In this document: positions 18,951-42,604 of the stretch, one piece after another
Position numbering within the stretch: position 1 is the stretch's first letter
How the letters are laid out: every line of letters begins with the position of its first letter
Origin: Chloroflexota bacterium
Lineage (GTDB): Bacteria; Chloroflexota; UBA6077; JACCZL01
Direction of reading: 5' to 3'
DNA length: 64,000 bases
Assembly (NCBI GenBank): GCA_030447245.1
Contig: JAUJPG010000013.1
Coordinates: 30,367-94,366 of the forward strand
Notes under the pieces: model-generated
The model's database searches: none
What the model was told of the DNA's origin: nothing
Seen by the model: the letters and a program-made list of their open reading frames with translations, nothing else
Translations under genes and position numbers: made by a program

Positions 18951-19205
18951 GGCCACCTCCCGCCCGGGCACGATAGCAGGGCATCAGGGAACGGGCAACA
19001 CGCACCCGGCAACACGCTCGCTGAAGCGCTGCATCGTCAGGCTCGCCCGTCCGTCGCCCGATCGAGAGGCCCCCGCGCCTTGCCTGCGAGTGACGCCTCC
19101 TGGTACCGTTAGCCGCCTGTGTCGGCGCCGCCGACGCGGCCGTTTTTTTGCCGTTGCCCCCGCGGACCCCGGCCGGGCACGGATGGATTGGACCAGTCTA
19201 CGCCC

Positions 19206-20384: not shown

Positions 20385-20400
20385 ATGACGGTGTAGCCGC

Positions 20401-21819: not shown

Positions 21820-21821
21820 GT

Positions 21822-23708: not shown

Positions 23709-25487
23709 TCACCCTCGACCCACCTCGTAGATCCGGATCGTGGGCCCCGGACGCTCGTAGCGATCCAGGCCCCAGAATGGGGTGTACAGGTCTTCCAGGT
23801 CGAACGGCAACGACGTGCCATCCTGACCCGGAAGGAACTCCGCGACCAGGCGACCTTCGCGTGAGAGCGCGTCGTAAAAGGCCGTCTGGCGGGCCAGCTT
23901 CGGCGCGTCACCGCGGAAGCGCTCGTACTGGAAGCTGGAGACGATGAAGTAGCGGTGCGGGCCGCGGAGCGCTCGGGCTGGGTCAGAGACTGCGACGTTG
24001 TTGACGTTGAACAGATCGGTGTCGAGCTGCCAGCTGGGCCCGCCGTACGCGCGCGGGCGTCGGTCGCGGATCGTGTACTCCTCGAGCGCCACCTTGGCGC
24101 CTGGCGGGACGTTGTCGAGCGCCCAGCGGGCGGCGAGGACGCGGGTGTCCTCGCGCTGCACGAGCGCGTTGTGGCGGGCCACGTCGAGCGCTGGCTGGAC
24201 CAGCGCGGCGACCGCGAGTGCCGCGGAGATCACCGGCCAGAGGCGGCCAGAGATAGCCGCGCCTGTTCCGCTACTAGCGTGGGCACGGCTCACCAGGAGG
24301 CCGATCCCGCAGCCGGCGAGCAGGCAAAAGAATGGCGCAACCGGTAGCGCGAAGCGGACGAAAAATAGCTCGGTGTCAAGCATGAAGCGCAGGTAGAGGA
24401 CCGGGAAGGTCAGGACGACGAGGGCCTCGCGCAGCCGATGCCGGACGAGCAGCACGCTTCCGACGACGACGAGCGCCAGCACGCCCCAGCCCAGTCCCTG
24501 ACCCAGCGCCTGGAGGTAGAGCAGCGCTGAGGGTCCCGGCACTTGCCCTTCCCAACCCTCGCCACCCAGCCGCAGCTGCGTCCGAAAGCCGGCCCAGAAC
24601 TCGTTGGAGTCGAGCAGCGCGTACGGCGTGCCGGCCAGGAACGCCAGCCCGCCCGCGCCGAGCGAGACGGCGAGGAGCCAGGTGCGCGGCCACAATTCCT
24701 GGAGGACGCCATCAGGCGAGCGCGGCTGCGCGGCCGCTCGGGAGAGGACGTGGGCGAGCACGAGCGGACCAACGAACAGGCCGGCGTTGTACTTGGTTGA
24801 CGTGGCCAGACCTCCCAGCACTCCAGCTAACAGGTAATTTCTCAGAGTCGGCCGCCGGACGATCTCTAGGCTGGCCGCGACGGACAGGACGAGCAGAAAG
24901 GTCGCCGGGACGTCGTTGGTGGCGTAATGCCCGTCGCGGACGTGGATGAACGCCAGCCCGAGGAAAGCCGCGGACGCCACTCCAGCCCAGGGGCCGGCCA
25001 GCCGCCAGCCGAGCCAGCCGACCGTGGCGACGGTTGCCCAGCCCATCAGGGCGCTGGTGAGGCGCCCGACCAACGCCACGCCCGTCGGTGGGCGGAGGGG
25101 ACCGTCGCTCGTCGTCGCATCGGCATCCGTCTTTGGCGGTTGGAACCCGAGCAGCCGGTACTGGCCGTACAGCAGGTAGGTGAACAGCGATGGATTGCGA
25201 AAGTACTTCGGGTTGAGCGAGTCGGTGGCGATCATGTCCATCGCCTTCCAACTGTAGTGCCCCTCGTCCGGATGGAACTGCCAGGGCAGCTGCCAGCCGA
25301 CGCTCCAGAGCCGCGCCCCGAGCGAGACGGCCAGGGCGACGGCCAGCCACAGGGTGGGCGCCCCAGCCGCCGACCGCCAGCCAGCCCGGCCAGTCACCAT
25401 CCGGGCGACGCTCGACGCCGGCGCATCGTCCATCGCCGGCCCGTCTGTGAGCGACGCGCTTCGGTCGGGCTCGGTGCGCGTCGCCAT
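23709..25487 (-). CDS. GT39-like membrane glycosyltransferase (array member 10, last)
   Basis: A 592-residue polytopic protein with about ten hydrophobic helices, of the ArnT/PMT (GT39, PMT_2) clan. These enzymes move a sugar from a polyprenyl-phosphate donor to an acceptor on the outer face of the membrane. The first periplasmic loop has the key acidic pair in WQFHPDEGHYSWKAMDM; later are HVRDGHYATNDVPATFLLVL and STKYNAGLFVGPLVLAH, which resemble the PMT loop. The final 150 residues form a soluble domain (KVALEEYTIRDRRPRAYGG, YFIVSSFQYERFRGD) with an ending IRIYEVGRG. Its ATG abuts the TAG of the preceding array gene. It is divergent from the other members. The donor and acceptor are unknown. 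Confidence 0.85.
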   Translation of the reverse strand: MATRTEPDRSASLTDGPAMDDAPASSVARMVTGRAGWRSAAGAPTLWLAVALAVSLGARLWSVGWQLPWQFHPDEGHYSWKAMDMIATDSLNPKYFRNPSLFTYLLYGQYRLLGFQPPKTDADATTSDGPLRPPTGVALVGRLTSALMGWATVATVGWLGWRLAGPWAGVASAAFLGLAFIHVRDGHYATNDVPATFLLVLSVAASLEIVRRPTLRNYLLAGVLGGLATSTKYNAGLFVGPLVLAHVLSRAAAQPRSPDGVLQELWPRTWLLAVSLGAGGLAFLAGTPYALLDSNEFWAGFRTQLRLGGEGWEGQVPGPSALLYLQALGQGLGWGVLALVVVGSVLLVRHRLREALVVLTFPVLYLRFMLDTELFFVRFALPVAPFFCLLAGCGIGLLVSRAHASSGTGAAISGRLWPVISAALAVAALVQPALDVARHNALVQREDTRVLAARWALDNVPPGAKVALEEYTIRDRRPRAYGGPSWQLDTDLFNVNNVAVSDPARALRGPHRYFIVSSFQYERFRGDAPKLARQTAFYDALSREGRLVAEFLPGQDGTSLPFDLEDLYTPFWGLDRYERPGPTIRIYEVGRG

Positions 25488-27593
25488 CTACGATCCGGGC
25501 TCGACCGTCATCGTTCGCAGCGTGACCGCTTCCGTCTCGCCGGACGTCGAGTTGACGACGGTGAGGCTTCCGCGCTGGCGGGGGTCTGAGACGCGGACCA
25601 CGAGCCGATACTCGCCCGGTGGGGTGCGGGGCGGAACGGTCAGACGGTGGACTTCGCCAAGGCGACCCGAAGCGTCCGGCCCGTCCGCTCCAAGCGGCCG
25701 CTCGTCCTGAACGGCGACGCGGCCGTCCGGGGCCAGAAGCTGAACGGCCGCCCGCTCGTCACCCTCGGCGGTGCGGTCCCAGCGCAGGAGCATCTGAATC
25801 TCCTCGCCGACCCGCGCAACGCCGCTGCCGGGCGCGGTCAGGTAGTCGACGAGCGTTGCCCGCCCGCCGAAATCAGCGCCGACACTCGCCCCGAGTGGAT
25901 GGTGCGGGCCACGATAGACCCGGGCATACTCAATCCCGTTGATCGCGACGACCAGTTCAGGTCTGCCCGCGTCCAGGAACGGCGTCAGCGCCTCGCGCTC
26001 GGCGCCCCGCTGGAGCGTGTTGACGTACGGCACGACGTAGTCGGCCAGCCGAGCGCGCTCCAGGGGCAGCGCGCTGCCCTCCAGGTGGGCCTGGAGGACC
26101 CGGTGGTACGAGGTTGCCACGGTTGGCAGGCCGAGTGCGCGTGGTTGCGCGTTCAGGTAGTCGGCCACTTCTGCCAGACCCTCGCCCCAGCCGACCAGGA
26201 TCACCCGCTGAGCGGTAGCCCCGCCTCCGAGCAGGGGGTTGTAATACGCTAACGCGTGCGGGTGGACGGCGAGCAGTGGTCCAGCCTGGAGGCTGACGAC
26301 GGCGACCAGGGCGGTGGCCGTGAGCGCGAGGCTCGCGCCTCCAGAACCGAACGGCCGGAAGCGCATCGTCGACCGCCACGCCGTCCACAATCCCAGCCCC
26401 GCGACCAGCCCGAGCAGCGGGAACACGGGCAGCAGATAGCGGTCGAACTTCTTGGGCGCCAGGCTCATCATCAGACCGAAGCCGAGACAGTACAGGCCGA
26501 GCGTCAGCACCGTCCGGCGCTGTGCAGCCGGGAGCCGACGCCAACCCACGGCTGCGAAGACCAGCCCGGCCAACGTGAGCGGCGCCAGACGGAACAGCAA
26601 TGCCAGCGGATAGAAGGCCGGCCCAGGATCTTCCAGCACCTGGCCGAAGAAGAAGTTGTCGTGGTCGCCCCCGCCGACCCGCTCGGTGAACTGCGCCATC
26701 TTGAGCAACGTGCCGATTGGGTCGACCCGGAATGCCGGCCAGAGCGCCAGACAGACGACCAGCGCGACCAGCCCCCAGACCAGGCCGGCCGCCACAACGT
26801 TGAGGCCGCGGGCTCCGGGCGCGCCCGCGCGGCGGCCCGCGAGCAGCTGGGAGAGCGCCAGGAGCGGGACGAACCCAAGGACGAAGACCGACGGCGCTTT
26901 GGTCAGAAACGCCAGCCCGGCCGCCACGCCCGCCAGGATGGCGTAGCCCCACCCGCCGCCGCCCTGCCAGAAGACGAGCGCCGCGAGCAGGCAAACGGCC
27001 GTGTAGGTGGCCAGCATCGAGTCCAGGTGGACCACGCGGGCGTGGGCAACCAGGAACGGCTCGAGCGCCAGCAGCAGTCCGCCGACGAGCGCCGGTCCCG
27101 CCCCGAGCAGCCGCCAGCCAAGCAGGGTGATCAGTGCCACGCCGGCCGCGGCCAGGATCGCAAACGGCCGGCGCGCGGCGAGCAGGGCGTCCAGGTAGCC
27201 GTCGCGGCGGGTGACGTCGGTCCGCCCCTCGCGGAACGAGAAGGCACGCGCCCGCTCCGGCCCCATCCCCAGCAGCGCTGTCCACATCGTGGTCACGCCG
27301 GGGTGGCCGATGATGAAGGTATCCTCGTCGTCACGATGGTCGACGAGGGCTCCGAAATCGGCCGCCCGCTGAACCCAGCGCGATTCGTCGATCGTCACGT
27401 ACGCGTCCAGATCTGCCAGCCGCGGCACGAGGGCCACGAAGAAGAGCACCAGGGCGACGGCGAGCCCGCGGCATGCCGCCAGGAGTCTGCCTCGGTGGCG
27501 CACGGAGGAGAACGCGGGCTCATCGCGGGGGCGGATCGTGTGGGCTTCGCGGGGTGCACGTGCCCTGGTGGGTACAACCCCCGCCGAGGTCAT
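25488..27593 (-). CDS. GT39-like membrane glycosyltransferase with C-terminal beta domain (array member 9)
   Basis: A 701-residue protein. The N-terminal span (LAVALVLFFVALVPRLADLD) is followed by the acidic loop VTIDESRWVQRAADF, then IIGHPGVTTMWTALLGMGPE, shared with array members 6-8. About eleven spans follow, then APKKFDRYLLPVFPLLGL and YYNPLLGGGATAQRVILVGW, both nearly invariant in this subfamily. The last 110 residues (about 590-700) are a predicted beta-sandwich (VGEEIQMLLRWDRTAEG, PPGEYRLVVRVSDPRQRG) likely to sit outside the membrane and bind acceptor or glycan. ATG 27,593 overlaps the preceding stop by ATGA, indicating translational coupling. Confidence 0.87.
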   Translation of the reverse strand: MTSAGVVPTRARAPREAHTIRPRDEPAFSSVRHRGRLLAACRGLAVALVLFFVALVPRLADLDAYVTIDESRWVQRAADFGALVDHRDDEDTFIIGHPGVTTMWTALLGMGPERARAFSFREGRTDVTRRDGYLDALLAARRPFAILAAAGVALITLLGWRLLGAGPALVGGLLLALEPFLVAHARVVHLDSMLATYTAVCLLAALVFWQGGGGWGYAILAGVAAGLAFLTKAPSVFVLGFVPLLALSQLLAGRRAGAPGARGLNVVAAGLVWGLVALVVCLALWPAFRVDPIGTLLKMAQFTERVGGGDHDNFFFGQVLEDPGPAFYPLALLFRLAPLTLAGLVFAAVGWRRLPAAQRRTVLTLGLYCLGFGLMMSLAPKKFDRYLLPVFPLLGLVAGLGLWTAWRSTMRFRPFGSGGASLALTATALVAVVSLQAGPLLAVHPHALAYYNPLLGGGATAQRVILVGWGEGLAEVADYLNAQPRALGLPTVATSYHRVLQAHLEGSALPLERARLADYVVPYVNTLQRGAEREALTPFLDAGRPELVVAINGIEYARVYRGPHHPLGASVGADFGGRATLVDYLTAPGSGVARVGEEIQMLLRWDRTAEGDERAAVQLLAPDGRVAVQDERPLGADGPDASGRLGEVHRLTVPPRTPPGEYRLVVRVSDPRQRGSLTVVNSTSGETEAVTLRTMTVEPGS

Positions 27594-29281
27594 GGCTGGT
27601 CTCCCCGCCGCGGTCCTTCGTGGACGCGCGCGTACTCGATGCCGTTGATCCAGACCGAGTGGACTGGTGGGTTGGCGGCGAAGTAACGCTCCAGTGCGCC
27701 GCCCCAGCGCTGCATCTGAATCCGACGGCCGTAGGTCACGATGTAGTCGGCGTCGCTCGGGACGCCCTCGCGCAACGGCTCGCCGTCGCCCGGGATCATC
27801 GGCGCCAGGATGTCGAAGGAGTGGGCGGCGACTCGCGCCTCAGCCGCGGCCGGCTGCGCCGCGATCCACGCCGCCGCCTGGTCCAGTCCTTCGCCGTTGC
27901 CGACCATGACGGTCCGCGCCGCGACCGGCCCGCCTCCGAGCAGCGGGTTGTAGTAGGCCAGCGGGTATGGCTGCACCGAGAGTAGCGGCCACGCCATAAG
28001 CGCCAGGAGGCTTGCCAGCAGCGCACCGCGCGTCACCGGTCGAGTCTGCCGTCTGAGCGCCAGCGACCAACCGAGTGCCGCGAGCGCGACGAGGGTCGGG
28101 AAGATCGGAAGCAAGTAACGGTCGAACTTCTTTGGCCCGAGGGTCATCATCAGCGCGAAGCCGAACGCAAACAGCGTCAGCCAGCCGGCCCGAGCGCCCG
28201 CGGCGCGAGGCAGGCGCCGAGTGGACACGACCAGCGCGATGAGCCCGAGCGTGACGAACGGGCTCAGGCGGAACAGCGTGGCGATCGGGTAATAGAGCGG
28301 CCCGGGATCAGCGCCGACCTGGCCGAAGAAGAAGCTGCCTACCTCGTCGGGCTGCCCGCCGGTCTCGCGGGTGAAAGCCGCCATGCGCCCGAGCACTTCG
28401 ACCGGCCCGAGCGCCCAGACGGCCGGCCACAGGGCGACGAAGGTCAGGGCGGTGGCGAGCAGCCACAGGAGCAGGTCCGCACTGAGCGCTCTGGGGAGTT
28501 GGGACGTGTGGGCGTCTACACGAAGCTTCAGGGTGCTGACGGCCAACACCGCCGGCACGAACCCGACCAGGAACAGGGCCGGCGTCTTGGAGAGCAGCGC
28601 CAGCCCCGCCGCGACGCCGGAAAGGAGCACGAAGCCGCGGCCGCCACCGGCCGTGCCGCGGACCAGCGCAGCCAGCACCGACAGCGTTACAAAGGTCGTG
28701 AGCAGCCCGTCGACGTGGACGAGCTGACCGTTGGCGACCAGGAACGGCTCCAGTGCCAGCCCCGCACCAGCCAGCAGTGCCGCCTCGCGGCCGAACAGGC
28801 GCCAGAGCAGGAGCGCCGCGGCCAGCGCACCGAGCGCCGCCACCACCGCGAAGCCGATCCGTGCCTGGGCGAGCCCATCCAGGTAGGCGGGAACCTGGCC
28901 GACGACGCGCAGGTTGTGGACCCGATCGGCGAAGCGGATCGCTCCCGTGGGGCCCTGGCTGAGCATCGCCGTCCACATCGTCGTCACGCCGGGATGGCCG
29001 TTTTGATAGGTCCGCCCCAGCTGACCATTCGCCAGCCCCCAGGTGAAGCCTCCCGCGCGCCGCATCCAGCTATCCTCGTCCGAGGTCGGGAACAGACCAC
29101 GACCAGCCAGCCGTGGCGTCAGGGCCAGGGCAAAGATCACCAGCCCCGCCAGAACCACCAGCCATCGACGCTCGGTAGCCGACGACTCATGGCCCGACCG
29201 GACGACCGCGCGCTCGGACGCATCCTGCTGATCGGCGTCGGTGGCCGGTCGTCGGTGGTCCGCCGCGATCGCGTGGCTCAC
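27590..29281 (-). CDS. GT39-like membrane glycosyltransferase (array member 8)
   Basis: A 563-residue polytopic protein starting at GTG 29,281, which overlaps the previous stop by 4 nt (GTGA). The acidic loop is FPTSDEDSWMRRAGGFTWG, followed by GQLGRTYQNGHPGVTTMW. Over the 30 residues from RRAGGF to TTMW it differs from member 7 at only two positions. Later motifs are GPKKFDRYLLPIFPTLVAL, AYYNPLLGGGPVAARTVMVG and GEGLDQAAAWIAAQ. It has no C-terminal beta domain and ends with the shared GIEYARVHEGP strand. Function as lipid-linked-sugar glycosyltransferase is inferred from the fold; specificity is unknown. Confidence 0.87.
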   Translation of the reverse strand: MSHAIAADHRRPATDADQQDASERAVVRSGHESSATERRWLVVLAGLVIFALALTPRLAGRGLFPTSDEDSWMRRAGGFTWGLANGQLGRTYQNGHPGVTTMWTAMLSQGPTGAIRFADRVHNLRVVGQVPAYLDGLAQARIGFAVVAALGALAAALLLWRLFGREAALLAGAGLALEPFLVANGQLVHVDGLLTTFVTLSVLAALVRGTAGGGRGFVLLSGVAAGLALLSKTPALFLVGFVPAVLAVSTLKLRVDAHTSQLPRALSADLLLWLLATALTFVALWPAVWALGPVEVLGRMAAFTRETGGQPDEVGSFFFGQVGADPGPLYYPIATLFRLSPFVTLGLIALVVSTRRLPRAAGARAGWLTLFAFGFALMMTLGPKKFDRYLLPIFPTLVALAALGWSLALRRQTRPVTRGALLASLLALMAWPLLSVQPYPLAYYNPLLGGGPVAARTVMVGNGEGLDQAAAWIAAQPAAAEARVAAHSFDILAPMIPGDGEPLREGVPSDADYIVTYGRRIQMQRWGGALERYFAANPPVHSVWINGIEYARVHEGPRRGDQP

Positions 29282-31038
29282 CGGTTCGCCAGCGTCGCCT
29301 GCGCGGCCAGGTGCGGACCTCGGTAGACCCGGGCGTACTCGATGCCGCCGATCCGAACGCTCAGCTCTGGCTCGGGACGATCGAGGTACTCGGCCAGCAC
29401 GCGCGGGCTGTGCCCGATCTGCATTCCGAAGCGGTACAGCACTACGTAGTCGGCCCGGCTCGGCACACGGTCGCGGAGCGGCTCGCCGGAGCTAACGATC
29501 AGCGGCTGGAGGATGTCGAACGAGTGCGAGACCACCCACAGATTTTCGGCGTTCGGCCGCTCGTTCAGCCAGCGCGCCACCTGGTCCAGCCCTTCGCCGT
29601 TGCCGACCATGATGGTCCGCTGCGCCGATGCCCCGCCGCCGAGCAGCGGGCTGTAGTACGACAGAAAGTACGGGTAGCTCGACGCGGCCGGCCAGAGCGC
29701 CACCAGCACCGCGACCAGGACGCCACCCACAACCGCTAAGTGAGCACGCGGTGCGCCCCCCTCCCAGGGCGGGCTTACCGTGCGCACGACGCCTGCGCCC
29801 GAGGCGATCCGTTCCAGGCCGGCCGCGAGCCCGAGCGCCGCCAGGACGCCGAGCGCCGGGAAGATTGGCAGCAGATAACGGTCGAACTTCTTGGCGCCGA
29901 ACGTCATCATCACCAGAAAGCCGAGGGTGTAGCCCAGGAGCGTCAGGATCGCCGGACGGCGTTCGGGCGGCATGCGCCGCCAGAAGACCCCGAGCAGCAG
30001 CAGTCCTAACAGCGTAGCGGGGGCCAGCCGAAACAGGACCGCCACCGGGTAGTACAGTGGACCTGGATCGCCACGCGGCTCGCCCCAGAAGAAGGTGCCG
30101 GCCTCGTGCGGCTGCCCGCCGGTCTCGCGCGTGAACTGGGCCACGCGCCCGAGCACCTCGGTCGGCCCGAGCACCCAGACGCTGGGCCACAGCGCGACGA
30201 AGGTGACGACGAGTGCGAGCAGCCAGACCAGCAGGTCCCCGGTGCGCGTCCTGATGTTCTGGGGAGGCCACACCCGGCTCCGGGAAGCGAGGTTGCCCGC
30301 GCGATGCTTCAGCGTGCCGGCAACCAACACCGCCGGCACGAACGGCACTAGGAACAAGGCCGGGCTTTTGGACAGCAGCGCCAGCCCGGCCAGCACGCCG
30401 GAGAACACGAGCCAGCGGCGCCCACCGTCTGGCGTCCGCGCCACCAACGCCGCCAGGACCGAGGCGATCATGCAGCCACTGAGCAGCGCGTCCATGTGGA
30501 CCAGCTGCGAGATCGCCAGGTAGAACGGCTCCAGCCCGACCAGCACGCCGGCCGCCAAACCCACGGCTGGCCCGAAGAGTCGCCAGCTCAACGCGGCGAT
30601 CACCGCCACCAGCGCGGCCGTCGCGAGTGCAAAACCGAGGCGGGCGTCGACCAGCGCCTCCCAGAACCCGGCCACCCGCCCGACCAGCCGCTGATTGTGG
30701 ACGCGGTCGGCATACTGGACCATCCGCTCCGGGCCGAGCGTCAACATCGCCACCCACATCGTCGTTACGCCGGGGTGGCCGTTCTGGTACGTCCGGCCGA
30801 GCTGGCCGTTGAGCAGCCCGTAGGTGAAGCCCCCGGCCCGTCGCATCCAGTTGTCCTCGTCGGCCGTGATCGCCACGTCCCGGGCCACCAGCCGCGCGCC
30901 GAGCGCCAGCGCGAACACGAGGCAGAGACCTAACCCCCCCAACCACTTCCCGACAGGCAAGGAGGAGTAGCTCGCCCTCCCCGACAGGGAAGGGCGCTGG
31001 GGGGCTACACCAATCGTCGCAGCGTCACTCAGCGTCAA
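29278..31038 (-). CDS. GT39-like membrane glycosyltransferase (array member 7)
   Basis: A 586-residue polytopic protein, the closest relative of member 8. The frame starts at TTG 31,038, 14 nt inside the previous gene; the first 25 residues are not conserved, so a later start is possible. Motifs are ITADEDNWMRRAGGFTYG, then GQLGRTYQNGHPGVTTMW, GAKKFDRYLLPIFPALGVLA, SYYSPLLGGGASAQRTIMVG and GEGLDQVARWLNERP. It ends with GIEYARVYRGPHLAAQ. The two genes are probably the product of a fairly recent tandem duplication. The hydrophobic profile gives about eleven membrane spans with a small soluble C-terminal part. Confidence 0.86.
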   Translation of the reverse strand: MTLSDAATIGVAPQRPSLSGRASYSSLPVGKWLGGLGLCLVFALALGARLVARDVAITADEDNWMRRAGGFTYGLLNGQLGRTYQNGHPGVTTMWVAMLTLGPERMVQYADRVHNQRLVGRVAGFWEALVDARLGFALATAALVAVIAALSWRLFGPAVGLAAGVLVGLEPFYLAISQLVHMDALLSGCMIASVLAALVARTPDGGRRWLVFSGVLAGLALLSKSPALFLVPFVPAVLVAGTLKHRAGNLASRSRVWPPQNIRTRTGDLLVWLLALVVTFVALWPSVWVLGPTEVLGRVAQFTRETGGQPHEAGTFFWGEPRGDPGPLYYPVAVLFRLAPATLLGLLLLGVFWRRMPPERRPAILTLLGYTLGFLVMMTFGAKKFDRYLLPIFPALGVLAALGLAAGLERIASGAGVVRTVSPPWEGGAPRAHLAVVGGVLVAVLVALWPAASSYPYFLSYYSPLLGGGASAQRTIMVGNGEGLDQVARWLNERPNAENLWVVSHSFDILQPLIVSSGEPLRDRVPSRADYVVLYRFGMQIGHSPRVLAEYLDRPEPELSVRIGGIEYARVYRGPHLAAQATLANR

Positions 31039-33186
31039 CGGTGTCGACGACCACCTGGCCGGGAGCGCGCCGCGACTCCCGGCCGAGTCGCTCTGGCCAG
31101 CTCGTGATCGGGAGCCACTCGCCGTTCGGGCGCCGCAGGCCGACGATCAGGCTGTACTCGTTCGGGGTATCCGGCAGCTCGAGGCGGTGCGACTCGATCC
31201 CAATCTCGCTCGGGCGCATCGCCGACGTCGGCCCATCGGCACCGGTCACCGGCGCGACGTGCTCGGCGATCCTGGCCCCTCGTCGATCGACCAGCTCGAC
31301 CACGGCCGTCAAGTCCTCCTCGATTGGTCGGGTGAGCTGCCATCGGAGCGTCAGCTCGACGGTATCGCCGGGATTGACGCTGTCCGACTTCAAATACCGG
31401 CGCTCGTCTGACTTGAGGAACGAGCGGTCAAGGCGGATCGCACCGCCGAACACGGTGCCGGCGGCGTTACGGCGCGGCGGTGGCGGGACCGGGAAGAGGC
31501 GCGCGTAGCGAATGCCGTTGATCGTGACCTGGACCTCGCTCCGCCGCCCCCGCGTGACGGTTCGCAGCCGATTCGCCAGGTCCCGCTGCTCGGCGTTGAC
31601 GTACAGCACGACGTAGTCAGCCTGGGCCGCGTCGTACTGCTTGTCCGAGAGCACCGACCCCTTGAACTGGGCGCTGATGACTCGCGGGTAGAAGCCGGCC
31701 ACAGTCAAACGCTCGGCGTTCGGCTTGGCGTTCAAGTAGCTCGTGATGATGTCCAGACCCTCCCCCCAGCCGACGACGAACGCCTTCTGGGCAGCCGCCC
31801 CACCGCCAAGCAACGGGTTGTAGTAGGCCAGGTAGTAGGGGTAGACCAGCGCCGCCGGTACGATCTGCGCGACGCCCACGACCAGCAGCGCGGCGGGCAA
31901 GACCCGCCCGCCGAGGCCGTGCGGCAGCCGTCGCAACAGGAGCCACAGCCCGACCGCCGCCAGGATCTCGACGGCCGGGACGATCGGCAGCAGGTAGCGG
32001 TCGAACTTCTTCGGCGCCAGGCACATCATCCCGACGAACAACACACCGTACAGGACGATCAGGCCGATCCGCGGTAGCCAGTCATTGGGGACCCGCCGCC
32101 CGATCGGCAGCATACCGACGACCAGCAGCGCCAGCCCGAGGATCGTCACGGGCGTCAGCCGAAAGGCAAGCGCGACCAGGTAGTACAACGGTCCTGGATC
32201 GCCGACCGGTCGACCGAGGAAGAAGTTTTCGTGATCCGAGCCTCCGACCGCCTCGGTGTAGTCCACCATCTGACGCAACGTCCCGACCGGGTCGGCCCGG
32301 AACGAAGGCCAGAGCAGCATCGCCGTGACGAGCGCGAGCAGTCCCCAGGCCAGGCCATCGACGAGCAGCCGAAGGATTCGCTTCCTGGAGGAGCCTTCGG
32401 CCTGCGCGGTCCGGGAAGGCCAACGCCCAGAGAGCAACGCGGAGATGGCGACGATCGGCACGAACATCGGCAGAAACGCCGAGGGCGCCTTGCTCAGGAA
32501 TGCCAGGCCGGCCGCTACGCCCGAGAGCGCCAGGTAGCCGCGGCCGCCGCCAGCCCAGAAGTAGACGAGCGCCGCCAGCAGAGAGACCGTCATCCAGGTT
32601 GTCACGTTGCTGTCGACGTGCGCGACGACCGAGTGGGCCAGGAAGAACGGTTCCAGGCCGAGCAGCACTCCGGCCAGCAGGCCCGGCCCGGCGCCGAACA
32701 GCCGCCAGGTCAGCAACGCGATCCCGACCACGGCGAGCGCGGTCATCACCGCGAACGGCTGCCGCGCCAGCCGCAGCGTCTCCAGGTAGTTCGGGGCCTT
32801 CTCCAGGCCATCCGGGCGCACGTACTCGACCAGCCCAAGCGCCCGCTCCGGGCCCATCCCGACGAGCGAGTGCCACATAGTCATCACGCCCGGGTGGCCA
32901 CTCTGGTAGGTCCCGGCCGAGTCACCTCTACCAGCGCCCGCGTGAACAGGGCTGTCCGCCCCATCCAGTTGCCTTCGTCGGTCGTCAGGTAGCCGCCGGT
33001 GTTGATGATCCGCGGATACAGGCTCACGAGGAACAGGGCAAGGCCGGGCTGCGGCGACGAGCACGCGACTCCTGGTCCGATCGGCGTTACGAGCGCGGGC
33101 GCCAGGCCGGACCGCCGCCCGCGGCGGGGAGGACCGGATTCGGCGACGGGCACGGCGTGGACGCGCTCGGCGGATGACAGCGTCAT
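31025..33186 (-). CDS. GT39-like membrane glycosyltransferase with C-terminal beta domain (array member 6), frameshifted
   Basis: The ATG at 33,186 overlaps the stop of the preceding gene (ATGA). The N-terminal span and acidic loop (LFLVSLYPRIINTGGYLTTD, then EGNWMGRTALFTRALVEVTR) are in one frame. After a one-base loss near 32,917 the protein continues in the other frame as AGTYQSGHPGVMTMWHSLVG. The corrected length is about 720 residues. Motifs are APKKFDRYLLPIVPAVEILA and YYNPLLGGGAAAQKAFVVGW. The C-terminal 130 residues form a beta domain (GDTVELTLRWQLTRPIEED, PNEYSLIVGLRRPNGEWLP), as in member 9. The frameshift is probably a sequencing error, because both halves are conserved. Confidence 0.85.
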
Positions 33187-34786
33187 CGGCTGGCCTCGCG
33201 GAGCCCGCTCGGCCCGGACGGGGTGTTGGCTCCGCGCTGCCCACCGCTCGCGCGCATCTTCCAGACCTCGACTCGGGTGTAATGGACGTGGCGGATCTGG
33301 GCCACCAGATCGGCGTTGTCCTCCATGAAGCGCGGCGTGCTGCGGGTCACGTCGTACTTCGCTTTGACGTCCAGGATGACGTACTCCGGGTCGATCTGAC
33401 GCAGGAACTCGGGCCAGGAGACGTTGCGCTCGCGGCGGATGCGCTCCCAGACGTAGAAGTCGACATACTCCAGGTAATACGGCGGACGGGCCAGGCCGAT
33501 CCAGTACACCGGCGGCGCCACGACGACCGAGCCCGGCGGGATCTGGGCCTGGAGCTGTGCAGACAAGGCCCCGTAGTCGCGCTCGCGGAAGTCGGAGGCC
33601 GCCTCGACGATGTCGCGGAAATTGTCCTCGAACCCGAGTCCCGAGACGGCCAGGACCGCCAGCAGGGCGCCGGCCAGCGGACGGACGCCGGTGACGAGCG
33701 CGCCGCCTGGCACCGCCGCAAGCCCCGCACCCAGCTCGGCGATCGCCGACGCCAGCAGGAGCACCAGCATCGGGAAGAACAGGATCAGGTAATACTCGGT
33801 CTTGCTGCTGACCAGCACCACGAACACGCCCAGGGCGATCAGCAGGCCGCCGAGCAGCGGATCGAGCCGCCGCGTCGCGAACGAACGTCGAACCGCCGCC
33901 CACACGCCGATCGCCAGCAGGGCCAGTTCCACGATCCGCCGCCCGAAGTACTGCGCCCAGCGCCCGAGCTCCGCCTGAAGGGCGCCCAGGATGTTGCCGT
34001 CGGCACTCGGCGGCCGCTTGTCGACGCCGATCCAGTAGCTGAACGCCTCGGCGTAGTGGCCAGGGTCGGGCAGGATTCGGACGCCGACGTAGTAGGCCGC
34101 GCCGAGACTGATGCCCGGCCGTGAACAGCCAGCTCTCACCAGCCAGCAACGTCCGCCGTCGAAACGCAACAGGTAGCACAGGCCGACCATCGGCATGAAC
34201 GCCAGCGTGTTCGGATGGACGTCGAACGACAGACCAAGCAATGCCCCGGCCGCCAGGTGCCAGGCGCGGCCGCCATCCTGGAGACCGCGGAGCGCGCAGT
34301 ACAGCGCGAGCATCACCAACGCCGCGACGACGACGTCGGGGCGGACGATGTGCGAGGAGACCAGGAACGGCTGCGAGACGGCCAGGCACAGCACCGCGAT
34401 CGCGCGGCTGCCTGCCCGTACAGGCGGCGGCCGGCCAGGAACGTCGCCCACAGCAGCACCCCGCCCCAGATCAAGGAGACAATGCGTCCCTGGAACAGCC
34501 CGAGGCCGAAGAGACGGAACGAAATAGCCGTCGAAAGCCCCTGGAGGCCGCCTTTGTAGAGCGGGTCGTGCTGGTAAATCGGATCGAGGTTGCGCGCCGA
34601 CGGGTCGATGCCGCTGGCAACCCAGAACGCGTTCATCTCGCGGCCCTCGTCGCCGTTGACCGCGGGCCAGGCGACGAGGAACGGAACATTCGCAAGCAGG
34701 TAGACGACGATGGCGCCGACAAGCAGCCAATCGGTCCAGGCGGCCGCCCGCTTGGCCGACGGGCGCCAATCGGCACGAGCGTGCAA
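33183..34786 (-). CDS. GT39-like membrane glycosyltransferase (array member 5), frameshifted
   Basis: ATG 34,786 opens MHARADWRPSAKRAAAWTDW, then a span and the loop AVNGDEGREMNAFWVASGID with the DE pair. A lost base near 34,410 moves the frame; the protein resumes as SRAIAVLCLAVSQPFLVSSH followed by IVRPDVVVAALVMLALYCAL. The corrected length is about 534 residues. HIVRPDV plus SFDVHPNTLAFMP resembles a separate branch of GT39 proteins, unlike members 6-9. The C-terminal soluble part carries FYVWERIRRERNVSWPEFLR and YVILDVKAKYDVTRSTPRF. It is the first gene downstream of the IS element and would depend on read-through or an IS-borne promoter. Confidence 0.8.
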
Positions 34787-34876
34787 TCACTGCTCCCTGG
34801 AGAGGGGCGCCCCGCGGGCCGCCCGAAACGGACCTAACTCTACCATGCTCCTGAGAACCGAGGAAAGGCACGCGCA

Positions 34877-36357: not shown

Positions 36358-36562
36358 CTTGACACGCACGGCTGGTTCGCCCCGGCGGCGGAAAGGACGC
36401 CAGGATCCGCCGCGGCCAACATGCGAACGCCAGGATCAGCCCGAGGCTCAGCATCTCGGTCGCCCGCCGCGCGAGTGCCGGCAGTCGACCACCCACGCGG
36501 CCAAATGGTGCTCCGATAGTGTCGGATGACGGAGGTGTCACCGCCACGGCGTGGTCGACCAT
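36350..36562 (-). pseudogene. Truncated N-terminus of a GT39-like gene (array member 4), cut by the IS
   Basis: ATG 36,562 shares its A with the TGA of the preceding gene (TGATG), the same coupling as in the rest of the array. The 70 codons encode a basic start and a first hydrophobic helix (LPALARRATEMLSLGLILAF). The frame then enters the right end of the IS element, where it stops in the outer terminal repeat. No remainder of the gene is found on the other side of the element, so the 3' part was deleted or lost in assembly. I infer a tenth glycosyltransferase from position, coupling and the helix only. Confidence 0.55.
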
Positions 36563-38577
36563 CAGCGGACGCGGACAGTCCCGACTTTGACGCGCCCGGC
36601 GGCCGGCGCGTCCAGCTCGTCCGGGTTCGCGGTGACCTCGGCCGGACGAGTCGTGCGCGTATTGTCCAGGCCCACCAGGACGCTGTACTCGCCAGGCGGC
36701 GCGGCCAGGTCAGGAACGAGCATGAAGCCGCGAAACAGCCAGGTGCCGGGACCCCAGCCGATGGTCCCGTCAGCGGTGCCCTCCATGTCCTGCTCCTGCG
36801 CAGCGTACTCGGCCCCGTCCGGACCGACCAGCGACAGGATCACGTGGTAGTTCACGCTGACGTCGCGCACCCCTTCCCAGCCCATGGTGACCGCGAACGG
36901 CTCGCCGCGACCAACCTCCGTCGCGCCGACGGTTGCTCCCAGCAGGCGGACGTCCTGGGCGAACTCAGTCCCGAGCGGCTGGTCGAGCGTCGCCAGCAAG
37001 GCGGTGCGCGCGGCCGCGAAGTCTTGATCGGCACGCAGATAGATGGTCCGGTCCTTCCCACGTCGGTTGCGCGCCTGCCGCGTCCCGAACGAGATCACCG
37101 GCTGGTAGCGCTGCTCGACCCAGGCGTTGAACCGCCCCAGCCGGCGGAGGCGGTCGGCCCAGAACATGACCACCTGCGCGTCGCGGTCGGTCGCGGCGCG
37201 CACGGCGACGTCGTCGGTCAGGGTGCCGGCCCGCGTCCGCCCGCGCGAGGGGTCGACCAGCTCAGGCGGGACCATCCTCCGCGCCAGAAAGGCGACGTAC
37301 GGGTGGTCGGTCAGCACGAACCGGTCGGCGGGGACGAGCGCTCGGAGCGCGCGCTCGGCCGGCGTGTCGAAGACGTGCAGGTCCAGGTCGTTCTCGTCGA
37401 CGATCGGCTGGACGCCGCGCGCGAGCGCCGGCTGGACCGCTGCCACGTCCCAGGCGAGCAGCAGGACCGCGAGCGCGCCGATGGCCAGCAGCCAGCGCGG
37501 CGACTGGCGGGACGCGGCGCTCGTGGTGCGCCAGAGGACCCCCAGCCCGGCGCCGGCAAGCACGGCTGCCGGCGGGGCCAGGTACACCAGGTGCTTCGGG
37601 TGCAGCGGGTTGTAGACGAACAGCAGCCCGAGCGTCGCCAGCGCCCAGGCAATCAGCGGCGCGCCACGTCGAGGCGCCCGCCAGACGAGCAGCATGGCTC
37701 CAAGCAGCGCCAGCGCATACAACGCGGGCTCGGCCGACACCGGTCCCTGGATCGCCTCCTTCCAGCTTGCTCGCGGATCCCAGCTCGCGGCGCTCGTCGC
37801 TCCCGCCCGGTAGACGACCAGCTGCTCGAACACCTCACGCGGTCCCATGATCAGGACCACCACCGCCGCGAGCCCCGCGACGACCAGGCCGTAGAGGACC
37901 ACGTCGGCCAGCGCACGCGCCCGCTCTATGCGCGGGGGGACAAGCCCCCCGACCACGGTGGGGACGACCGCGGGAGCGCGGGTGAGGAGTGCCACCGCTA
38001 CCGCCAGTCCCGCCGGCACGATCATCGGCTTCAACAGCAGCGCCACGCCCAGCAGCAGCGCCGATCCGATCAGCCAGCCTCGGCCGCCGCCGACCTGGAA
38101 GCGACCGATCAGCGCCAGAGCGAACAACGCGGGGGCTATCGAGGGCACCTCGGCGAGCGCCAGGCGCGAGCCTTCCAGGTACGCTGGGCTGAGCGCCAGG
38201 AGGGCGCACGCTAGCAGCCCACCGACGCGACCCCCGACCTCGCGGGCGGCGAGGTAGGCTCCAACCAGCCCGAGCAGCGAGAGCACGCCGACGCCCAGGC
38301 GGATCGCCCCGAGCGTCTCGCCGAACAGGCGATAGAAGGGGTAGAGCGTGTCGAGCAGCAGGGGACCCTGGGCGGCGTAGACGTCGCGGTATGGGCGAAA
38401 GCCCTGGGCCATCAAGAAGAGCTGCTCGGCCCGAATGCCCTCGTCGAACAGGTCCGGAAAGTTGCTGCGGGCGCCCTCCAGGTCGATGACCCGCATCGCC
38501 AGGGCGCCGGCCAAGATGGCGACCAGCATGACCCAGTGGACCGCGGGCCACCATCTGCTTCGGGGCGACGCAGGCAT
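36562..38577 (-). CDS. GT39-like membrane glycosyltransferase with C-terminal beta domain (array member 3)
   Basis: A 671-residue protein; I choose ATG 38,577 because upstream codons overlap the previous gene and are not conserved. It belongs to the second subfamily, with the acidic loop FPDLFDEGIRAEQLFLMAQG followed by FRPYRDVYAAQGPLLLD and LFGETLGAIRLGVGVLSLLG. About ten membrane spans follow, then a soluble region (AERALRALVPADRFVLTDHP; RRMVPPELVDPSRGR). Last comes a beta-sandwich (SVNYHVILSLVGPDGAEYAA; PGEYSVLVGLDNTRT). It keeps an aspartate/glutamate pair as expected for GT39 catalysis. Gene 4 starts inside its stop codon. Confidence 0.86.
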   Translation of the reverse strand: MPASPRSRWWPAVHWVMLVAILAGALAMRVIDLEGARSNFPDLFDEGIRAEQLFLMAQGFRPYRDVYAAQGPLLLDTLYPFYRLFGETLGAIRLGVGVLSLLGLVGAYLAAREVGGRVGGLLACALLALSPAYLEGSRLALAEVPSIAPALFALALIGRFQVGGGRGWLIGSALLLGVALLLKPMIVPAGLAVAVALLTRAPAVVPTVVGGLVPPRIERARALADVVLYGLVVAGLAAVVVLIMGPREVFEQLVVYRAGATSAASWDPRASWKEAIQGPVSAEPALYALALLGAMLLVWRAPRRGAPLIAWALATLGLLFVYNPLHPKHLVYLAPPAAVLAGAGLGVLWRTTSAASRQSPRWLLAIGALAVLLLAWDVAAVQPALARGVQPIVDENDLDLHVFDTPAERALRALVPADRFVLTDHPYVAFLARRMVPPELVDPSRGRTRAGTLTDDVAVRAATDRDAQVVMFWADRLRRLGRFNAWVEQRYQPVISFGTRQARNRRGKDRTIYLRADQDFAAARTALLATLDQPLGTEFAQDVRLLGATVGATEVGRGEPFAVTMGWEGVRDVSVNYHVILSLVGPDGAEYAAQEQDMEGTADGTIGWGPGTWLFRGFMLVPDLAAPPGEYSVLVGLDNTRTTRPAEVTANPDELDAPAAGRVKVGTVRVR

Positions 38578-38654
38578 CACCCGCTCCCGGGCAGATCGCG
38601 GCAGAGCGCGCGGCAGGACGGGGGCCCCATCCGCCGCCCCTACGGTCCGATCCA

Positions 38655-40667
38655 CTACCGGACCTGAATCGTACCCAGCTCGAAGCGGTAGAGCGGGTCG
38701 ACGCGGGAGCCGAGCCGCTCGTCGCCGGCGGTGATATGCCGCTCGGAACGGGCTCGAGTGTCCAGGACGCCGACCGTGGCGGTGTACTCGCCGAGCGGCG
38801 CGGTGTCCGGGAGCTTGAAGATCGACGTCTGGAACAGCCAGCGGCCCGGCTGCCATTCGGTCAGGCCGACGTTGCGGCTGCCCAGCGAGAGCTCCTCGTC
38901 CGCCCAGACCTGGCCGTCCGGCCCGCGCAGCTCGGTCAGGATGTGGTAGTCGACGCTGGCGCGGCCGAGCCCTTCCCACTCATAGGTCACGCCCAGGTTG
39001 CCGGCCTGGGTCATCTCGGCGCGGTCGAGCCCCCAGCCGTGCAGACGAAGGATGCCCCCAAAGTCGGCGCTCGCCGTCGTGCGGATGGCTCCCTCCCGGG
39101 TCGTGGTCGCCAGCGCCGCGCGGGCCTGGCTCGAGTCGGCGTGATCACGCCGCAGGTAGACCACCCGTGGGGCGTTGCCGCCACGACTGTACACCTTGGC
39201 AGGTTGGAACCGCTCATCGAGCCAGGTGGTGAACGCGCGCAGCCCGCGCAGGCGGTCGCCCCAGAGGACCACCAGCTTCGCGTCGTAGGCGTCACCGGCC
39301 TGGGCGATCTCCTCGCCTGTCAGCTCGCGGGCGCGGACCCGCGTCCGCGACGGGTCGGCCAGCTCCGGCGGGACCAGCCGCCGCGCCAGGAACGGCAGCT
39401 CCGGGTTGTCGGTCACCACGAAGTCGGCCGGTTGGGTCAGTCCCGCGATGGCCGCGGCGGCGTCTGCCGACTCGGGGAAGCGCTCGCCCTCGGTGCTCGG
39501 CCCGAGGTTCATGAACCGCGCGTCCCAGCTCAGCACCGCCGGCGCCGACCACAGGTACAACAGGGCCGGACCGGCCAGCGCCAGGACGCCGACCATCCCC
39601 TGCCAGCGCGCGGCGCGGACGGCCTGCCAGACCCGCCCGATGCCCGCTCCAGCCAGGATCGCGACGGGCGGCAGCAGGACGGCAGCATGCTTCGGGAAGA
39701 GCGGCGCGTACGCCAGCAGCAGGCCGAGACTGAGCCCAGCCCAGGCGACCAGCGGAAGCGCCCGCCGCGGACTGTCGAGCAGGAGCGCCAGGCCCGAGCC
39801 GCCCGCCAGCGCGAACAGGCCGATCCCGTCCCGCCCGAGCGTTTCCTGGAGGAGCTTCCAGTTCTCGCGCGGGTTCCAGCCGCTCGCCTCACGACTCTTG
39901 AGGCGGTAGTCGACCATCTGGTTCAGCACCGCCTGGAGGTCCGTCGACAGGATGACCCCGGCGACGACCAGCGCCGTCGTGAGCCCGACGAGCAGCAGCG
40001 GCCCCAGGCCGCGCCGTCTGCCGAGCACGGCAGCCAGCGCGACCGGCAGGACCGCCGCGGCCACGATCGGCTTGACCAGCAGGGCCACGCCGAGCAGGAC
40101 GCCGGACAGGACCAACCAGGCGTGGCGCCCGCTGCGCTGGAAGGCCAGCGCGGCCCCGATCGCCAGAATCGCTGGCGCGAGCGCCGGGACCTCGGCCAGC
40201 GCCTGGCGCGAATTGCGCAAGTAGGTTGGACTGAGCGCCAGCAGCGACGCCGCCGCGACCCCGCCGAGCGGGCCGCCGACCAGCCGCGCGACCCAGAACG
40301 CGCCCAGGATCCCGACGAGCGAGTACACGCCAACCGCCAGCCGGGCTGCGCCGAGCGTCTCGCCGAACAGCGAGTACAGCGGATACAGCATGTCCAGCAG
40401 GAGCGGCCCCTGGGACGAGTAGATCTCGCGGACCGGCCGAAAACCGGCCGTCATCAGCAGCAGCTGCATCCCGCGAATGCCCTCGTCCAGGTCGCCGCTC
40501 GACCCGCTCAAGCGGACCAGCCGCATGAAGGTCGAGCCAACCAGGATGATCCCGAGCGCCAGCGTCTCGGCCGGCCAGGTCGCCGCCGCGGCGGCCGGGG
40601 CGCGCAGCGCCGTCAGCGAGAGGGTACGCGACTGCATGGTTCTCGCGTACGTCGCTTGCTCACTCAC
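38655..40667 (-). CDS. GT39-like membrane glycosyltransferase with C-terminal beta domain (array member 2)
   Basis: A 670-residue protein. GTG 40,667 overlaps the previous stop as GTGA; an alternative ATG lies 30 nt later. Motifs are SGDLDEGIRGMQLLLMTAGF, then YSSQGPLLLDMLYPLYSLFG and LKPIVAAAVLPVALAAVLG. The soluble region has [20 protein letters not shown] and RLVPPELADPSRTRVRAREL. The beta domain carries SVDYHILTELRGPDGQVWAD and LGEYTATVGVLDTRARSER. It aligns along its whole length with members 1 and 3, so these three form one paralogous block. Role: transfer of sugar from a polyprenyl carrier, acceptor unknown. Confidence 0.87.
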   Translation of the reverse strand: MSEQATYARTMQSRTLSLTALRAPAAAAATWPAETLALGIILVGSTFMRLVRLSGSSGDLDEGIRGMQLLLMTAGFRPVREIYSSQGPLLLDMLYPLYSLFGETLGAARLAVGVYSLVGILGAFWVARLVGGPLGGVAAASLLALSPTYLRNSRQALAEVPALAPAILAIGAALAFQRSGRHAWLVLSGVLLGVALLVKPIVAAAVLPVALAAVLGRRRGLGPLLLVGLTTALVVAGVILSTDLQAVLNQMVDYRLKSREASGWNPRENWKLLQETLGRDGIGLFALAGGSGLALLLDSPRRALPLVAWAGLSLGLLLAYAPLFPKHAAVLLPPVAILAGAGIGRVWQAVRAARWQGMVGVLALAGPALLYLWSAPAVLSWDARFMNLGPSTEGERFPESADAAAAIAGLTQPADFVVTDNPELPFLARRLVPPELADPSRTRVRARELTGEEIAQAGDAYDAKLVVLWGDRLRGLRAFTTWLDERFQPAKVYSRGGNAPRVVYLRRDHADSSQARAALATTTREGAIRTTASADFGGILRLHGWGLDRAEMTQAGNLGVTYEWEGLGRASVDYHILTELRGPDGQVWADEELSLGSRNVGLTEWQPGRWLFQTSIFKLPDTAPLGEYTATVGVLDTRARSERHITAGDERLGSRVDPLYRFELGTIQVR

Positions 40668-42604
40668 CCGCGCACCCGGACCGTGGTCAGCGATAGCTCG
40701 TCGGCACCGGCGTCGAGCGGCACGGTCCGCCGCGCGCGCGAGTCGTAGACGCTGACCGACAGGCGGTAGTCGCCGGCGGCCGTCGACGCGCGGATCGGCA
40801 ACGACGCGCTTCGGATGACCCAGCGGCCCGGCTCCCACCCAGAGGTCCCCTCGCCGCCCCCGCCGAGGCCGCGCTGGGTCTGTTCGGCCACCCGCCCCTG
40901 CGCATCACGCAGGATCGTCAGCACGCTGTAGTCAGCCTGCATCGGGCCGACCGCCTGCCAGCCGAGCGTCACCTGGAGACTGCCGCCCGCGCGTGCCTCG
41001 CCCCGCTCCAGGCTGTGCCCGAGCAGCCGAAGCTGCCCGCCGAAGGTCCCGAGCGTAGAGCGATCCAGGCTGCGCTCGAAGAGGGCCCTGGCGCCGTCCA
41101 GGTCGGCGTCGCGGCGGAGGTAGAGCGCGCGGTCCTTGCCATTGCGGCGCTCGTTGATCTTGACCGTCACGTACCGCTCGTCGACCCACTCGGCGAAGCG
41201 CCGGAGGCTCCGCAGCCCGTCGCTGAAGAGGAACAGCAGCTTGACGTCGTGCGCCTCGGTCGCCGCGATCACGTCGGTCGCCCCCAGAGATCGAGAACGG
41301 ATGCGGACGGCCGAGGTATCGACCAGGCGGGGCGGGACGAGCCTTCGTGTTGCGAATGCGACGGCCGGCTCGTCGGACACGATGAACTCACGCGGCCCGG
41401 TCAGTGCCCCGATCGCCGCGACCTCGTCGTCGTAGCTCTCCGGCCGGGTTTCGCCCTGGCCCAGCAGCAGGCGACGATCGAGGTCGAGAACGGACGGCAG
41501 CGTCAGCACGTACCAGAGCGCCAGGCTGAACACGACGAGCGAGACTCGCGAAAGACGAGAGGTGAGCGTGCCGGTCGATCTCGGCCCTGCCGCGCTCGAC
41601 CACCACGCGCCGGCTCCGACGCCGACGAGCAGCGCCAGCGGCGGCAGCATGATCACCGCGTGCTTGAACTGGATTGGCGAGTACGCCATGAGCAGCGCGA
41701 ACGTCGCGAGCGGCCAGGCTACGAGCGGCACCCCCAGCCGTGGCCGGGCGACCAGCAGGAGCAGCCCAGCGACGGCCGCGGCGGCGTGGAGCGCAAGCCC
41801 TTCGTCCACCAGCTCGCCCGAGATCGCCGTCCAGTTCTCCTTGAGGCTCCAGCCTTCCACCTGGCGCGACGCGATTCGGAAGCGGACCATCTGGTCGTAC
41901 ACGTCGGCCGGCCCGACCGCCAGGATGACGATGGTCGCGATGGCCGCGCAGGTACCGCCGACAATCGCCGCGTCACGGACGACGCCCGGCAGGCGCTGGC
42001 CCGGCCGCAGAAGCACCGCCAGGGCGATCGGCACGGCTGCCGGCAACACCATCGGCTTCGTGAGCAGCGCCAGCGCCAGCAGCGCGCCACTGGCGGCCAA
42101 CCAGCGTCGGTCGCCCCAGCGCTGATAAGCGAGCGCCGCGCCCACCGCTGCCAGTGCCGGCGCCAGCGCCGGCACTTCCACCAGTGCCAGCCGAGAGTTC
42201 TTCAAGTAGACCGGGCTCAGCAGCAGGAGCAGCCCGGCCGTCGCGCCGGCCACCGGCCCGGCGGCCGCTCGGGCGATCGCGGCAACCAGCAGCAGGCCGA
42301 CCAGCGAGAACAGAGCCGGGGCCAGCCGGGCTGCCCCGAGCGTCTGCCCGAACAGCATAAACGTCGGATAGAACAGGTCCAGCGAGAGCGGGCCCTGCGA
42401 CGCGAAGATGTCGCGAAACGGGCGGTACCCGGCGGCCATCAGCAGAAGCTGCGCGCCGCGGATGCCCTCGTCGAACTTGCCGGCGAGCTGGTCCAGGTTG
42501 ACCAGGCGCAGCCCGGCGGCCGTCAGCAGCGCGAACGCGCCGGCCGCCTCGGCCAGGGTGCCAAGGCGCCGCGCCTGGACCGGCAGGGCAAGGGTTCTGA
42601 TCAT
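40664..42604 (-). CDS. GT39-like membrane glycosyltransferase with C-terminal beta domain (array member 1, first)
   Basis: A 646-residue protein from ATG 42,604, the promoter-proximal gene of the array. Motifs are LAGKFDEGIRGAQLLLMAAG and FASQGPLSLDLFYPTFMLFG, then LKNSRLALVEVPALAPALAA and LLTKPMVLPAAVPIALAVLL. The soluble part holds YDDEVAAIGALTGPREFIVS and RRLVPPRLVDTSAVRIRSR. The beta domain holds QADYSVLTILRDAQGRVAEQ and the closing YRLSVSVYDSRARRTVPLD. Parts of its 5' end and upstream region recur in scrambled form at 45,905-46,530. The upstream 43-kb gap probably carries the array promoter, though none is clear. Confidence 0.87.
   Translation of the reverse strand: MIRTLALPVQARRLGTLAEAAGAFALLTAAGLRLVNLDQLAGKFDEGIRGAQLLLMAAGYRPFRDIFASQGPLSLDLFYPTFMLFGQTLGAARLAPALFSLVGLLLVAAIARAAAGPVAGATAGLLLLLSPVYLKNSRLALVEVPALAPALAAVGAALAYQRWGDRRWLAASGALLALALLTKPMVLPAAVPIALAVLLRPGQRLPGVVRDAAIVGGTCAAIATIVILAVGPADVYDQMVRFRIASRQVEGWSLKENWTAISGELVDEGLALHAAAAVAGLLLLVARPRLGVPLVAWPLATFALLMAYSPIQFKHAVIMLPPLALLVGVGAGAWWSSAAGPRSTGTLTSRLSRVSLVVFSLALWYVLTLPSVLDLDRRLLLGQGETRPESYDDEVAAIGALTGPREFIVSDEPAVAFATRRLVPPRLVDTSAVRIRSRSLGATDVIAATEAHDVKLLFLFSDGLRSLRRFAEWVDERYVTVKINERRNGKDRALYLRRDADLDGARALFERSLDRSTLGTFGGQLRLLGHSLERGEARAGGSLQVTLGWQAVGPMQADYSVLTILRDAQGRVAEQTQRGLGGGGEGTSGWEPGRWVIRSASLPIRASTAAGDYRLSVSVYDSRARRTVPLDAGADELSLTTVRVRG

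What the first reader, a model, noticed from the sequence alone, without database searches (positions are those of the whole stretch)
23709..42604. Nineteen-kilobase operon of nine or ten paralogous GT39/PMT-like glycosyltransferases
Nine polytopic genes plus one truncated relative lie head to tail on one strand, mostly with ATGA, GTGA, TGATG or abutting TAG-ATG junctions, so they are translationally coupled. All keep an early acidic loop (DEG, DES or DED) typical of ArnT/PMT-type catalysis. Most bacteria carry one to a few such genes, often scattered. A coupled array suggests stepwise building or combinatorial decoration of one surface polymer or glycoprotein. The family assignment is established knowledge; the joint pathway is inference.
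Basis: partly seen in the sequence, partly recalled or inferred. Interest (0 to 1): 0.78.

Follow-up and report, generated by a model that had tools for sequence, protein, structure and literature searches.

The report
Conserved nine-gene membrane sugar-transferase array
A bacterium related to known Chloroflexota carries nine related membrane genes, predicted to encode sugar transferases, side by side in an order that two related genera largely share; their products likely work together outside the membrane on a surface glycan whose identity is unknown.

Summary
The array is real. Nine minus-strand genes at 23709-42604 pass Pfam's PMT_2 cut-off, and AlphaFold models of two (one per main subfamily) have the GT-C fold. 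The 'truncated tenth relative' is the antisense of a transposase in an insertion sequence (34907-36320) lying between two modules, g10>g9>g8 and g6>g5>g4>g3>g2>g1. Seven of eight junctions overlap or abut. g5 and g6 are each read in two frames; a nearby APS-kinase gene is broken likewise, so assembly indels are a likely cause. The order is conserved: the six-gene module recurs in one related genus, five of its positions in a second. Trees place g2-g5 and g8-g10 with their positional orthologues, 59-75% identical, against 36-53% between paralogues of one subfamily. Tandem runs are common in Chloroflexota (33 of 79 loci holding a subfamily-B gene); nine is the longest seen here. The genome has 75 PMT_2 and 37 GT2 matches. 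Best reading: non-redundant, polyprenyl-phosphate-sugar-dependent transferases acting on a shared surface glycan; donor, acceptor and joint pathway are inferred. Interesting, but a variant of known GT-C biology.

The parts
40664..42604 (-). g10, GT-C glycosyltransferase, subfamily A, with C-terminal beta-sandwich; first gene of the array
   Evidence: PMT_2 40.6 bits; AlphaFold model pLDDT 92.3, GT-C fold; orthologues in G001 and G002
38655..40667 (-). g9, GT-C glycosyltransferase, subfamily A; GTG start overlaps g10 stop (GTGA), ATG alternative at 40637
   Evidence: PMT_2 39.1 bits; junction; orthologues in G001 and G002
36562..38655 (-). g8, GT-C glycosyltransferase, subfamily A; start GTG 38655 or ATG 38577
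   Evidence: PMT_2 42.8 bits; orthologue in G002
Similar outer flanks at all four copies, so the element may extend some 30-40 nt on each side
33183..34786 (-). g6, GT-C glycosyltransferase, read in two frames as assembled (break near 34.4 kb); TTG start assumed
   Evidence: PMT_2 40.2 bits; G001 orthologue aligns in two frames, 71% and 61% identity; start
31025..33186 (-). g5, GT-C glycosyltransferase, subfamily B with an extra C-terminal stretch, read in two frames as assembled (break near 32.9 kb); ATG overlaps g6 stop
   Evidence: PMT_2 38.8 bits; G001 orthologue aligns in two frames; junction sequence
29278..31038 (-). g4, GT-C glycosyltransferase, subfamily B, without the extra C-terminal stretch
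   Evidence: PMT_2 45.9 bits; alignment; orthologues in G001 and G002
27590..29281 (-). g3, GT-C glycosyltransferase, subfamily B, without the extra C-terminal stretch
   Evidence: PMT_2 30.9 bits; alignment; orthologues in G001 and G002
25488..27593 (-). g2, GT-C glycosyltransferase, subfamily B, with C-terminal beta-sandwich
   Evidence: PMT_2 32.3 bits; AlphaFold model pLDDT 92.4, GT-C fold; orthologues in G001 and G002
23709..25487 (-). g1, GT-C glycosyltransferase, last gene of the array
   Evidence: PMT_2 40.3 bits; orthologues at the same position in G001 and G002; a 42% relative beside subfamily-B genes in L123

Best explanation
The locus is a conserved array of nine PMT_2-family membrane genes, predicted to be GT-C glycosyltransferases, which likely take sugars from polyprenyl-phosphate donors and would add them, one specific linkage per enzyme, to a shared surface glycan on the outer face of the membrane. 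Shown: nine PMT_2 genes, tight junctions, GT-C models for two of nine, the invariant DE of the first outer loop in the alignments of both main subfamilies, and the same gene order and positional orthologues in two other genera. Inferred: polyprenyl-phosphate donors (from the GT-C fold and the ArnT/PMT/GT136 precedent), a glycan acceptor (g2, g5, g8, g9 and g10 carry an extra C-terminal stretch, modelled as a beta-sandwich in g2 and g10, whose nearest solved beta folds include the Wzt carbohydrate-binding domain), and one common product (from co-linear conservation only). The donors would be made and flipped by genes elsewhere in the genome.
Against: No gene for donor synthesis or flipping was recognised in the array, unlike the three-component systems, and no GtrA family member was found in the genome. 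The two modules are on separate contigs in G001, where the A module is followed by other genes, so they need not share a product. The genome has 51 isolated PMT_2 matches as well, so clustering is not required for function. For g2 other Ig-like folds score as well. In PMC11127046 the binding domain was not essential for transfer. Support for g1 and g6 as tree orthologues is weaker (g6 with G001 91/87, g1 with G002 86/97, not starred). Two of nine genes are frame-broken as assembled.
Confidence: 0.55

Rival explanations
1. A tandem family without a common pathway: the genes are independent decorating enzymes with different targets, kept adjacent by their origin in tandem duplication.
For: Phylum-wide abundance of PMT_2 genes (59 of 61 genomes) and of short tandem runs (33 of 79 loci holding a subfamily-B gene); G002 has three g5-type copies in place of one, a sign of local duplication; 51 single matches in this genome.
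Against: The same order with single-position orthologues in other genera, 7 of 8 coupled junctions, and g1 and g6 in the array although they are only distantly similar to the others, which duplication in place does not readily explain.
Confidence: 0.27
2. Protein O-glycosylation: the enzymes are protein O-mannosyltransferases or relatives that glycosylate secreted or S-layer proteins.
Confidence: 0.1
3. The array is decaying: an insertion sequence separated the modules, and g6 and g5 downstream of it are inactivated.
For: Insertion sequence at 34907-36320; g5 and g6 each read in two frames while G001 carries both in single open frames.
Against: Each broken gene shows one break, with alignable coding sequence on both sides and coding-type differences in the in-frame part; an APS-kinase gene about 10 kb away is broken in the same way, which points to indel errors in the assembly; g4 to g1, farther downstream, are open. 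The transposase reads in two frames too, but its other copies also lack one clearly full-length frame (334 to 362 codons), so it is a poor control.
Confidence: 0.08

Closest known systems
ArnT (GT83), undecaprenyl-phosphate-Ara4N : lipid A transferase, PDB 5EZM/5F15
   Different: Single gene in a lipid A operon with its own donor pathway (recalled); here nine paralogues without donor genes, five with an extra C-terminal stretch
GT136 ORF12 and three-component systems (PMC11127046)
   Same: GT-C membrane domain plus a C-terminal Ig-like domain; subfamily B also keeps an early Asp (D69), an H-x-D (H189, D191) and an R-Y pair (R385, Y386) in the same order as D31, H174-x-E176 and R349-Y350 of ORF12. 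This is a comparison by motif order, not by alignment, and H174 and E176 were not needed for activity there
   Different: No polyprenyl-phosphate-sugar synthase or MATE flippase recognised in the array; nine transferases instead of one; the sequence of ORF12 was not compared
EmbA/EmbB/EmbC and AftA to AftD, mycobacterial arabinan synthesis
   Different: Emb chains are over 1000 residues; no sequence match to them was listed
TIGR03663, 'flippase activity-associated protein Agl23'
   Same: Only NCBIfam match of g2, g6, g8, g9 and g10 at E 0.01
   Different: 16.2 to 38.2 bits against a cut-off of 126.25

Membership tests
GT-C superfamily | GT-C membrane fold with an active site in the first outer loop | tested here: met
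Pfam PMT_2 (PF13231) | Score above the gathering cut-off of 26.1 bits | tested here: met
   9 of 9, 30.9 to 45.9 bits
GT39, protein O-mannosyltransferases | Pfam PMT N-terminal domain (PF02366) above 22.7 bits | tested here: inconclusive
   6 of 9 (g1, g2, g3, g4, g9, g10); not listed for g5, g6, g8 at E 0.01
GT39, protein O-mannosyltransferases | C-terminal PMT_4TMC domain (PF16192, recalled) | tested here: not met
   Not listed for any of nine at E 0.01
GT39, protein O-mannosyltransferases | Transfer of mannose from a polyprenyl or dolichyl phosphate to Ser/Thr of proteins | not testable with these tools
   Needs biochemistry
GT83, ArnT | Ara4N transfer to lipid A | not testable with these tools
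   Needs biochemistry; no NCBIfam family other than TIGR03663 matched any of the nine at E 0.01
GT136 / three-component systems | Clustered polyprenyl-phosphate-sugar synthase and flippase | tested here: not met
   Between 23709 and 42604 only the nine transferases had Pfam matches and the insertion sequence weak transposase matches; nine further overlapping ORFs of this stretch, of many, had none
GT136 / three-component systems | C-terminal acceptor-binding Ig-like domain | tested here: inconclusive
Agl23 (TIGR03663) | Score above the cut-off of 126.25 bits | tested here: not met
   At most 38.2 bits

The most novel reading that the evidence does not exclude
A lineage of Chloroflexota builds a complex surface polysaccharide mainly outside the membrane, on an assembly line of position-conserved GT-C transferases fed by polyprenyl-phosphate sugars, in place of the usual cytoplasmic nucleotide-sugar route; the order of the genes reflects a fixed order of linkages, and local copy changes (one g5 against three) change the product.
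Probability: 0.17. Interest if true: 0.78.

Novelty: new variant of a known kind. Interest (0 to 1): 0.5.

Why it matters
GT-C enzymes that use polyprenyl-phosphate sugars are known mostly as one or a few per pathway (recalled). Here 75 PMT_2 matches in one genome outnumber its 37 GT2 matches two to one, and a nine-gene array keeps most positions as separate orthologues in other genera, so its members are probably not redundant. I know of no described envelope glycan for these uncultured bacteria (recall, and the paper searches listed under Tried and rejected); the array gives a defined set of genes to express and test. The comparison also gives a practical warning: the PMT_2 label in this phylum hides several position-specific subfamilies.

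Tried and rejected
Tenth gene: rejected, antisense of transposase frames. Insertion into a terminator hairpin: considered, rejected because the four copies share similar outer flanks, which look like outer ends of the element. Aconitase in two overlapping ORFs as a control for indel errors: rejected, since the best-matching frames of the relatives also look too short to hold both domains (open frames of 472 to 610 codons in G001, G002, G008, G009). An APS kinase-sulfatase fusion next to the array: rejected, the linker is an out-of-frame stretch and the natural kinase end lies in another frame. Transposase as a second control for indel errors: weak, its other copies also lack a clearly full-length frame. 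Sulfated glycan: no Sulfotransfer_3 match in the genome (other sulfotransferase families not searched). GtrA-type flippase: none found (other flippases not searched). Agl23 membership: far under cut-off. Wzt_C by sequence: only sub-threshold on g5. Sigma-70 and terminator scans gave nothing clearly above shuffles. Paper searches: among the papers listed (at most 20 shown per search, titles and abstract starts seen) none was on tandem PMT_2/GT39 arrays in Chloroflexota; only open-licence papers are held, so this is weak. One search looked for the source of MGR_bin229 (its habitat is a guess from the name) and gave two listings, not read. Limits: the tree was the quick method without bootstrap; PMT_2 counts were capped at 50 per genome; named loci are cut at 10-kb flanks or contig ends and were picked because they hold a subfamily-B gene; of nine proteins only g2 and g10 were modelled.
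Full report
What is there. All nine pass the Pfam PMT_2 cut-off and six also pass that of PMT. They form two main subfamilies: B (g2 to g5, 41 to 53% identity) and A (g8 to g10, 36 to 43%); g1 and g6 are only distantly similar to the others. Junctions are tight: 7 of 8 overlap or abut.

What is not there. The tenth 'relative' (35313-36038) matches no Pfam family. The other strand carries transposase frames; the second of two matched NCBIfam IS481 (E 4e-6) and IS3 (E 2e-5), both far under cut-off, and neither matched Pfam or PHROGs. They lie between 28-nt inverted ends at 34907-36320. Three further near-full copies at 95 to 98% identity lie elsewhere in the genome. So the array is two modules with an insertion sequence between them. 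In addition g6 and g5 are each read in two frames, while the related genome G001 has both in open frames. An APS-kinase gene at about 22.3 kb is broken likewise, and the transposase reads in two frames, though its other copies also lack a clearly full-length frame. Breaks in unrelated genes within 14 kb make indel errors in the assembly the simplest cause, but decay is not excluded.

Conservation. In 29 genomes searched with the B alignment, 5 had matches at E 1e-30; in the 16 held genomes of the order, 4 at 1e-60: all three of the family and G008. The A alignment gave the same 4 of 16. G001 has g6>g5>g4>g3>g2>g1; G002 has three g5-type genes, then g4>g3>g2>g1, then a convergent gene 79% identical to the sulfatase part of the window's neighbour; its contig starts inside the first g5-type gene, so g6 cannot be judged. 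G002 has g10>g9>g8 on a 6.5-kb contig and G001 g10>g9. In G001 the A pair is followed by an RmlD gene and, further on, another PMT_2 gene, so there the modules are apart. Trees place g2, g3, g4 and g5 each with the same positions of the two other genera (127 rows), and g9, g10 (both genera) and g8 (G002) likewise (24 rows); g3 and g4 are sisters (99), and g2 is sister to g5 with one G008 gene (99). For g1 and g6 the support is lower and not starred (10 rows). G008, of another family in the order, has subfamily-B genes on both sides of a gene that is most likely the 42% relative of g1 (L123). Orthologues are 59 to 75% identical to the window genes (the two extra g5-type copies of G002 60 and 55%), paralogues of one subfamily in the array 36 to 53%.

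How unusual. The genome has 75 PMT_2 matches at E 0.001, 70 over cut-off: runs of 9, 5, 4, three of 2, and 51 single. GT2 (PF00535) has 37 matches, a few of which look like pieces of one gene. Among 61 genomes 59 have PMT_2; medians of the capped counts are 27 for the 15 others of the family and order, 27 for 13 of the class and 12 for 32 of the rest of the phylum. Among 79 named loci holding a subfamily-B gene, 33 have a head-to-tail run of two or more and 18 of three or more, the longest being 7 in MGR_bin229, which is G002. A single-contig MAG chromosome (G061, record CP070811) has 40 matches with four in a row at 912903-921197, which argues against tandem runs being assembly artefacts. Nine is the longest run seen here, but no complete survey was made.

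Mechanism. The most likely reading is a set of non-redundant transferases that take polyprenyl-phosphate sugars on the outer face and act on a shared glycan. The steps shown are gene content, fold (two of nine), motif and conservation. The donor type rests on the family; the glycan acceptor rests on the C-terminal domain and on GT136 ORF12, whose similar domain binds the acceptor polysaccharide though it is not essential there (PMC11127046: abstract and sections 9 and 10 read); the joint product rests on co-linear conservation alone. The main rival is independent decoration with adjacency by descent.

Verdict. It is a conserved variant of known GT-C biology, with unknown product.

Noticed in passing
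window 21822-22400: The APS-kinase gene is broken in frame and appears fused to the following sulfatase-domain gene; the natural end of the kinase lies in another frame. Probably an assembly indel, not a fusion protein.
   Followed up: yes
window 19119-23675: ATP sulfurylase, a PF01663 phosphodiesterase, APS kinase and a sulfatase-domain gene stand in a row, convergent to the array; the sulfatase part is conserved at the same place in G002. No Sulfotransfer_3 match in the genome.
   Followed up: partly
window 34907-36320: Insertion sequence with four near-full copies (95-100%) in the genome, the others differing from this one by 11 to 56 gap positions; similar copies of its end sequence flank each copy.
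   Followed up: partly
G000 C73:399721-408170 and C73:281799-291988: Two further tandem runs of five and four PMT_2 matches in the same genome; GT2 matches lie beside or inside the first one (C73:409039 and 401270).
   Followed up: no
L139, L162, L175, L180, L186, L190: Anaerolineae-type genomes hold two to four subfamily-B paralogues in one locus that fall into separate clades shared between genomes, like an independent or older version of the same arrangement.
   Followed up: partly
L113, L123 (JAJPGT01): The record is titled Proteobacteria (Centralia_MAG_106), but the matching genome G008 is listed as the same order as the window and its genes group with those of Chloroflexota records: the title is probably wrong.
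   Followed up: no
L195:12194-13105: An RmlD-type dTDP-sugar reductase follows the A module in G001, a lead that its product may contain a deoxysugar.
   Followed up: no
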